From: Candidatus Dojkabacteria bacterium
Lineage (GTDB): Bacteria > Patescibacteriota > Dojkabacteria > JAOAGR01
Direction: 5' to 3'
DNA length: 48,557 nucleotides
NCBI GenBank assembly: GCA_026415655.1
Contig: JAOAGR010000011.1
Coordinates: 1 to 48,557, forward strand
Part shown: piece after piece, positions 46,696-48,538 of the stretch
How positions within the stretch are numbered: position 1 is the first letter of the stretch
Layout of the letters: each line of letters begins with the position of its first letter
Notes under the pieces: model-generated
Told to the model about the DNA's origin: nothing
The model's input: the letters and a program-made list of their open reading frames with translations, nothing else
The model's database searches: none
Position numbers and translations under genes: made by a program

Positions 46696-48538
<1,843 letters not shown>

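What the first reader, a model, noticed from the sequence alone, without database searches (positions are those of the whole stretch)
46911..46935. Sarcin-ricin loop carries C instead of the universal A2660
Minus strand reads CCTAGTACGCGAGGACC; the near-universal form is CCTAGTACGAGAGGACC. The tetraloop GAGA is therefore GCGA, and the changed base (window position 46921) is the equivalent of E. coli A2660, the adenosine attacked by ricin and central to GTPase activation of EF-G and EF-Tu. The flanking bases are exact, so alignment is not in doubt. GCGA is still a GNRA loop, so the fold could survive. Seen together with an altered EF-G G4 motif and an altered A-loop in the same genome.
Basis: partly seen in the sequence, partly recalled or inferred. 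Interest (0 to 1): 0.85.

Follow-up and report, generated by a model that had tools for sequence, protein, structure and literature searches.

The report
Bacteria with rewired sarcin-ricin loop
A ribosomal RNA base often described as universal, the one that ricin removes, is replaced by cytosine in this bacterium and at least four more times within its class (Dojkabacteria), and the protein parts that touch this spot tend to change with it.

Summary
The only 23S gene found in this 0.88 Mb genome has sarcin-ricin loop (SRL) GCGA instead of GAGA (A2660C, window 46921). It is not an error. The organism belongs to Dojkabacteria (WS6, Candidate Phyla Radiation). Of 56 genomes of the class with a readable SRL, 16 lack A2660 (15 C, 1 U) and 25 more carry G2661A (GAAA). 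A 23S tree needs five independent losses of A2660. All loops stay GNRA. Elsewhere in the phylum every listed rRNA copy is GAGA. A scan of about 85,000 species genomes found 39 loci without A2660, including Clostridia, Midichloriaceae and Comchoanobacter. New here: the change co-varies with residues of the published A2660 contact network. uL6 Gly174, next to Lys175, is present in 15/15 GAGA and 0/29 other Dojkabacteria (Pagel p=3e-5). EF-G Ser661 becomes Asn or Ala in three of five non-A2660 clades and in no A2660 member of the class (p=0.006-0.015). A-loop U2552A occurs only in non-A2660 lineages, three times. The EF-G G4 change is unrelated (p=0.89). An E. coli strain with only GCAA ribosomes is reported to grow almost normally (PMC5829649). 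Most likely: a working GNRA substitute with co-adapted uL6 and EF-G contacts. Function is inferred, not tested.

The parts
46693..48557 (-). 23S rRNA gene, 3' part (5' part lost at the contig end); the only LSU found in the genome
   Evidence: Rfam RF02541, 1617 bits; whole-genome search
46914..46928 (-). Sarcin-ricin loop, E. coli 2653-2667, UAGUACGCGAGGACC
46919..46922 (-). GNRA tetraloop G2659-C2660-G2661-A2662 (GCGA); C2660 is window base 46921
47023..47035 (-). A-loop with C2551G, U2552A (window 47031) and G2557A; G2553 intact; same changes in G001, G031 and most of f2
37349..39451 (-). EF-G (fusA), 700 aa; H20, I21, I63, H87, E456, R660, S661 kept, Ser at 664; P-loop and PGH motif intact
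   Evidence: NCBIfam TIGR00484, 1030 bits; alignment
37436..37456 (-). EF-G domain V segment IRSITSG (Tth 659-665), which contacts A2660; Ser661 unchanged here but N or A in three other non-A2660 clades
39017..39028 (-). EF-G G4 motif NKLA (NKxD expected); not associated with the SRL state
46479..46588 (-). 5S rRNA
   Evidence: Rfam RF00001, 83.7 bits

Best explanation
This is a genuine, vertically inherited and probably functional variant of the sarcin-ricin loop. In Dojkabacteria the apex GAGA has been exchanged several times for another GNRA loop (GAAA, GCAA, GCGA, GUAA). The elements that place the A2662 phosphate and the G-bulge (G2655, U2656, C2658, G2659, A2662, G2663, A2665) are all kept, so GTPase activation by His87 of EF-G (His84 of EF-Tu) should still work. 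What changes is the secondary contact network around base 2660: the uL6 C-terminal tail (Gly174 lost whenever the loop is not GAGA) and, in three of five clades, EF-G Ser661 (with E456Q/K in family f2). SHOWN: the sequences, their distribution, at least five independent losses of A2660, and the co-variation. INFERRED: that the ribosomes work normally, that the uL6 and EF-G changes are compensatory or permissive, and that these ribosomes cannot be depurinated at 2660.
For: Sequence and single copy. Class survey: 15 GAGA, 25 GAAA, 16 non-A2660; all listed rRNA copies elsewhere in the phylum GAGA. 23S tree with SRL masked: class monophyletic; independent losses of A2660 in f1 (window family), f8/f10, G031 (sister G040 is GAGA), G004 and f2. 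G2659, A2662 and G2553 invariant in all 53 aligned sequences. EF-G: residue 661 ranks first of 691 by Fisher test and is the only one of 185 columns invariant in A2660 Dojkabacteria that differs in three of five non-A2660 clades; Pagel p=0.006 and 0.015. uL6: residue 174 ranks first of 180; 15/15 G vs 0/29; 14/14 G in other GAGA CPR; Pagel p=2.6e-5, five changes in each trait. These residues lie in the published A2660 network (EF-G H20, E456, R660, S661, Q664; uL6 K175; PMC6562825); Thermus numbering of uL6 checked against a PDB chain. E. coli with A2660C/G2661A (GCAA) in all ribosomes grows normally at 32-42 C, mildly cold-sensitive, EF-G GTPase not significantly changed (PMC5829649). A published rule for viable bacterial SRLs is GNRA plus G-bulge (PMC4176186).
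Against: Few independent events (five), so EF-G p-values are modest. EF-G 661 is unchanged in f1 (the window) and G031, and varies in three GAGA CPR outside the class (one N, two G). Most non-A2660 bacteria outside Dojkabacteria keep EF-G E456 and S661, and E. coli has GAGA without uL6 Gly174 (KEAK), so neither protein change is obligatory. Non-A2660 lineages also evolve fastest at otherwise conserved 23S positions, a confounder. The E. coli experiment tested GCAA, not GCGA alone. In-vitro data reviewed in PMC6562825 point to a purine-type base at 2660 for EF-G GTPase.
Confidence: 0.77

Rival explanations
1. Fast-evolving, relaxed rRNA: the non-A2660 lineages drift at many conserved sites and the SRL, A-loop, uL6 and EF-G changes are parallel but functionally independent.
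For: The genomes with most deviations at 836 near-universal 23S columns are non-A2660 (24-40 per 1000 for most of f1/f2/G031/G004 against 6-20 for most others). H69 (1915/1916/1918) and A-loop changes occur in the same lineages.
Against: The uL6 174 link also holds in slowly evolving GAAA lineages (f6: 7-17 per 1000) and in all five transitions. EF-G 661 and uL6 174 rank first in unbiased scans of their proteins, at the published contact site. G4, a rapidly changing EF-G site, shows no association.
Confidence: 0.17
2. Selection for resistance to SRL-targeting toxins (N-glycosidases that remove A2660, or nucleases that cut at G2661-A2662) drives loss of A2660 and G2661 in these epibiotic or parasitic bacteria.
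For: The two variable positions are those used by ricin-type and sarcin-type toxins (PMC6562825). Several other carriers have symbiotic lifestyles (Midichloriaceae, Comchoanobacter).
Against: No toxin or antitoxin evidence was sought or found. Many GAAA lineages keep A2660. Other CPR with similar lifestyles all keep GAGA.
Confidence: 0.06
3. Sequencing, assembly or binning artefact, or a 23S pseudogene.
For: The 23S gene lies at a contig end of a metagenome-type assembly and reads were not available.
Against: Same base in an independent one-contig genome of the same family; clade-consistent states across 16 genomes; LSU, 5S and EF-G on one contig, with 23S grouping with G001 (100% support) and EF-G 77% identical.
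Confidence: 0.02

Closest known systems
Canonical bacterial sarcin-ricin loop (H95, GAGA)
   Same: Same place, same G-bulge and C2658-G2663 closing pair, GNRA tetraloop, G2659 and A2662 kept
   Different: A2660 (and often G2661) replaced; the uL6 tail, and in some clades EF-G 661/456, changed
Engineered E. coli A2660C/G2661A (GCAA) ribosomes (PMC5829649)
   Same: Same loop as G001, G031, G004, f2 and part of f10; viable as sole ribosomes
   Different: Laboratory mutant in a GAGA background; the window carries the single change GCGA, with its own uL6 and EF-G
SRL viability rules from mutagenesis and a bacterial 23S alignment (PMC4176186)
   Same: GNRA plus G-bulge predicted viable; eight variants were taken from a 23S alignment (their table was not readable here, so overlap cannot be excluded)
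   Different: The readable text reports no lineage, repeated origin or protein co-variation

Membership tests
GNRA tetraloop | G at 1, purine at 3, A at 4 | tested here: met
   GCGA; G2659 and A2662 invariant in 53 sequences, 2661 always G or A
Sarcin-ricin loop | G-bulge (G2655, U2656, A2665) and C2658-G2663 closing pair | tested here: met
   AGTACG..AGGAYC motif in window and relatives
Sarcin-ricin loop | A2660 at the apex (ricin target) | tested here: not met
   C2660
Functional 23S rRNA (not a pseudogene) | Single copy, vertically inherited, conserved functional centre | tested here: met
   One copy, groups with G001; A2662, G2659 and G2553 kept; the 5' part is missing at the contig end
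Canonical SRL activation of trGTPases | EF-G GTPase stimulated by these ribosomes | not testable with these tools
   Needs biochemistry; EF-G H20, H87 and R660 are conserved

The most novel reading that the evidence does not exclude
Dojkabacteria have repeatedly rebuilt the GTPase-associated centre as a unit: SRL apex, uL6 tail (174), EF-G domains III/V (456, 661, 664), and in some lineages the A-loop (2551/2552/2557) and H69 (1915/1916), giving a natural alternative interface for activating translational GTPases without A2660.
Probability: 0.4. Interest if true: 0.85.

Novelty: new variant of a known kind. Interest (0 to 1): 0.77.

Why it matters
The SRL apex is among the most conserved stretches of rRNA, and A2660 is treated as the hub of an interaction network for translational GTPases and as the target of ricin-type toxins. 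A bacterial class in which this base was lost at least five times gives natural replicates. They indicate which contacts tend to move with the base (uL6 174, EF-G 661) and which never move (G2659, A2662, His20, His87), so the long-debated role of A2660 becomes testable by comparison and by swap experiments.

Tried and rejected
EF-G G4 motif as partner of the SRL change: rejected (Pagel p=0.89, 0.95; NKxN also in GAGA genomes). EF-G changes as a general requirement: rejected, since most non-A2660 bacteria outside the class keep E456/S661; a deltaproteobacterial MAG with GCAA has S661N, but so does G235 with GAGA. Bacillus sp. FJAT-49736: only 1 of 7 copies is GCGA, not a fixed change. Chloroflexi G445 bin carries several different rRNAs, probably mixed. 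Odd hits in G179 and G184 (CAGTACGCCAGG, CAGTACGGGAGG) judged chance: each genome also has a GAGA copy. LepA: the 664-equivalent is H/R/K in seven non-A2660 genomes (and in f10 genome G024, SRL unread) but S/Q in A2660 ones (G084 has H); the 661-equivalent is N in GAAA family f6; too few genomes, left as exploratory. uL6 of non-Dojkabacteria carriers and of G048 (GAAA inside the GAGA family f5) could not be fetched (caps reached). Five genomes whose downstream stretch gave no uL6 hit were left out, and G254 gave a hit without the tail.

Full report
OBSERVATION. The minus strand at 46930-46914 reads CCTAGTACGCGAGGACC, within a bacterial LSU rRNA match that runs off the contig end. Alignment to E. 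coli rrlB places the changed base at A2660; G2659, G2661 and A2662 are unchanged, so the tetraloop is GCGA. The genome has one SRL and one LSU. Reads are not available, but the nearest relative, a single-contig genome of the same family, also has C2660, with A2661 in addition (GCAA).

WHO IT IS.

CLASS-WIDE PATTERN. I could read the SRL in 56 genomes of the class: GAGA 15, GAAA 25, and 16 without A2660 (GCAA, GCGA, one GUAA). All are GNRA. In the rest of the phylum every listed rRNA copy was GAGA (list truncated). A 23S tree built without the SRL columns recovers the class as one clade and needs five losses of A2660: family f1 (the window), f8/f10, G031 (sister G040 is GAGA), G004, and f2. State changes are far fewer than in shuffles (5 against 14.1), as expected of inherited states and not of errors.

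OUTSIDE THE CLASS. A scan of about 85,000 species genomes for any non-A2660 SRL followed by the conserved GCAT motif gave 39 loci. Besides Dojkabacteria these include about ten Clostridia-type MAGs (GCAA), four Midichloriaceae-type genomes including Bandiella and Aquarickettsia (GGGA), Comchoanobacter (GCAA), two Zixiibacteriota (GCAA), two Chloroflexi (GGAA) and one Micrarchaeota (GCGA). Most have a single SRL copy, except Bacillus sp. FJAT-49736 (1 of 7 copies) and a probably mixed Chloroflexi bin. The scan depends on flanking motifs, and many MAGs lack 23S, so these are lower bounds.

PROTEIN PARTNERS. A review of the structural work names the A2660 network: EF-G His20, Glu456, Arg660, Ser661 and Gln664, and uL6 Lys175 (PMC6562825). 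I aligned EF-G from the class. In an unbiased scan of 691 positions, residue 661 is the most associated with the 2660 state (12 of 16 non-A2660 altered; none of the A2660 genomes, the one counted being a truncated gene). It is the only column invariant among A2660 members that differs in three of the five independent clades (Asn in f8/f10, Ala in f2 and G004). Glu456 is replaced (Q or K) only in f2. A Pagel test gives p=0.006 on the 23S tree and 0.015 on an EF-G tree that includes three GAGA genomes with changed 661; Glu456 alone is not significant (p=0.20). The window's own family keeps Ser661.

uL6. The tail residue 174, next to Lys175 (Thermus numbering checked against a PDB chain), is Gly in 15/15 GAGA Dojkabacteria and 14/14 other GAGA CPR, and never Gly in 29 GAAA/GCAA/GCGA/GUAA genomes. 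It is the top-ranked of 180 positions (Fisher 4e-12, not corrected for phylogeny). Both traits change five times on the tree; Pagel p=2.6e-5. E. coli has GAGA with KEAK, so Gly174 is not a general requirement for GAGA.

OTHER 23S SITES. The A-loop change U2552A (with C2551G and G2557A) occurs in f1, G031 and most of f2 and in no A2660 genome. A1916/U1915 in H69 change in f8/f10, G004 and f2. Non-A2660 lineages are also the fastest evolving at conserved 23S sites, which is the main confounder. The G4 motif of EF-G (NKxD to NKxN or NKLA) is not associated.

MECHANISM. The parts thought to place the catalytic His (the A2662 phosphate, the GNRA fold, the G-bulge) are all kept. An E. coli strain whose ribosomes are all GCAA grows normally at 32-42 C, with no significant EF-G GTPase change (PMC5829649), and mutagenesis rules accept any GNRA loop (PMC4176186). 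So base 2660 is most likely replaceable, with secondary contacts through the uL6 tail and EF-G domain V re-tuned. That these protein changes compensate is an inference. In-vitro data that favour a purine at 2660 leave open whether GCGA alone is slower.

NOVELTY. In the paper library no report linked SRL variants with Patescibacteria or Dojkabacteria. A 2014 study took eight SRL variants from a 23S alignment, but its table was not readable, so some loops may already have been listed there. The class-wide repeated loss and the co-variation with uL6 and EF-G appear new.

Noticed in passing
37349-39451 (39017-39028) and EF-G of relatives: EF-G G4 motif NKxD is NKLA in the window family and NKxN in many Dojkabacteria and at least four other CPR genomes (G096, G123, G254, G292), although this Asp normally gives guanine specificity.
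   Followed up: partly
L079, L060, L053, L061: Midichloriaceae-type symbionts (Aquarickettsia, Bandiella and two MAGs) share an SRL GGGA (A2660G) with unchanged EF-G contacts.
   Followed up: partly
L052, L057, L065, L067, L068, L072, L075, L083, L085, L086: A group of small-genome gut Clostridia-type MAGs carries GCAA as its single detected SRL, with EF-G E456/S661 kept where EF-G was readable.
   Followed up: partly
LSU of G014, G008, G047, G004, G002, G009, G015: H69 loop changed at 1915, 1916 and/or 1918 in several non-A2660 lineages.
   Followed up: no
LepA in L248-L266 and L318-L337: LepA residue equivalent to EF-G 664 is basic (H/R/K) in seven non-A2660 genomes and mostly Ser/Gln in A2660 genomes; the 661-equivalent is Asn in the GAAA family f6.
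   Followed up: partly
L044, L046, L048: 23S genes of about 3.9-4.2 kb in G040, G049 and G054 suggest insertions (introns) in the LSU gene.
   Followed up: no
27908-30493: S8-type serine protease ORF ending in two dockerin-like repeats (DFNNDGIVNISDLSILAARW...), read by eye only.
   Followed up: no
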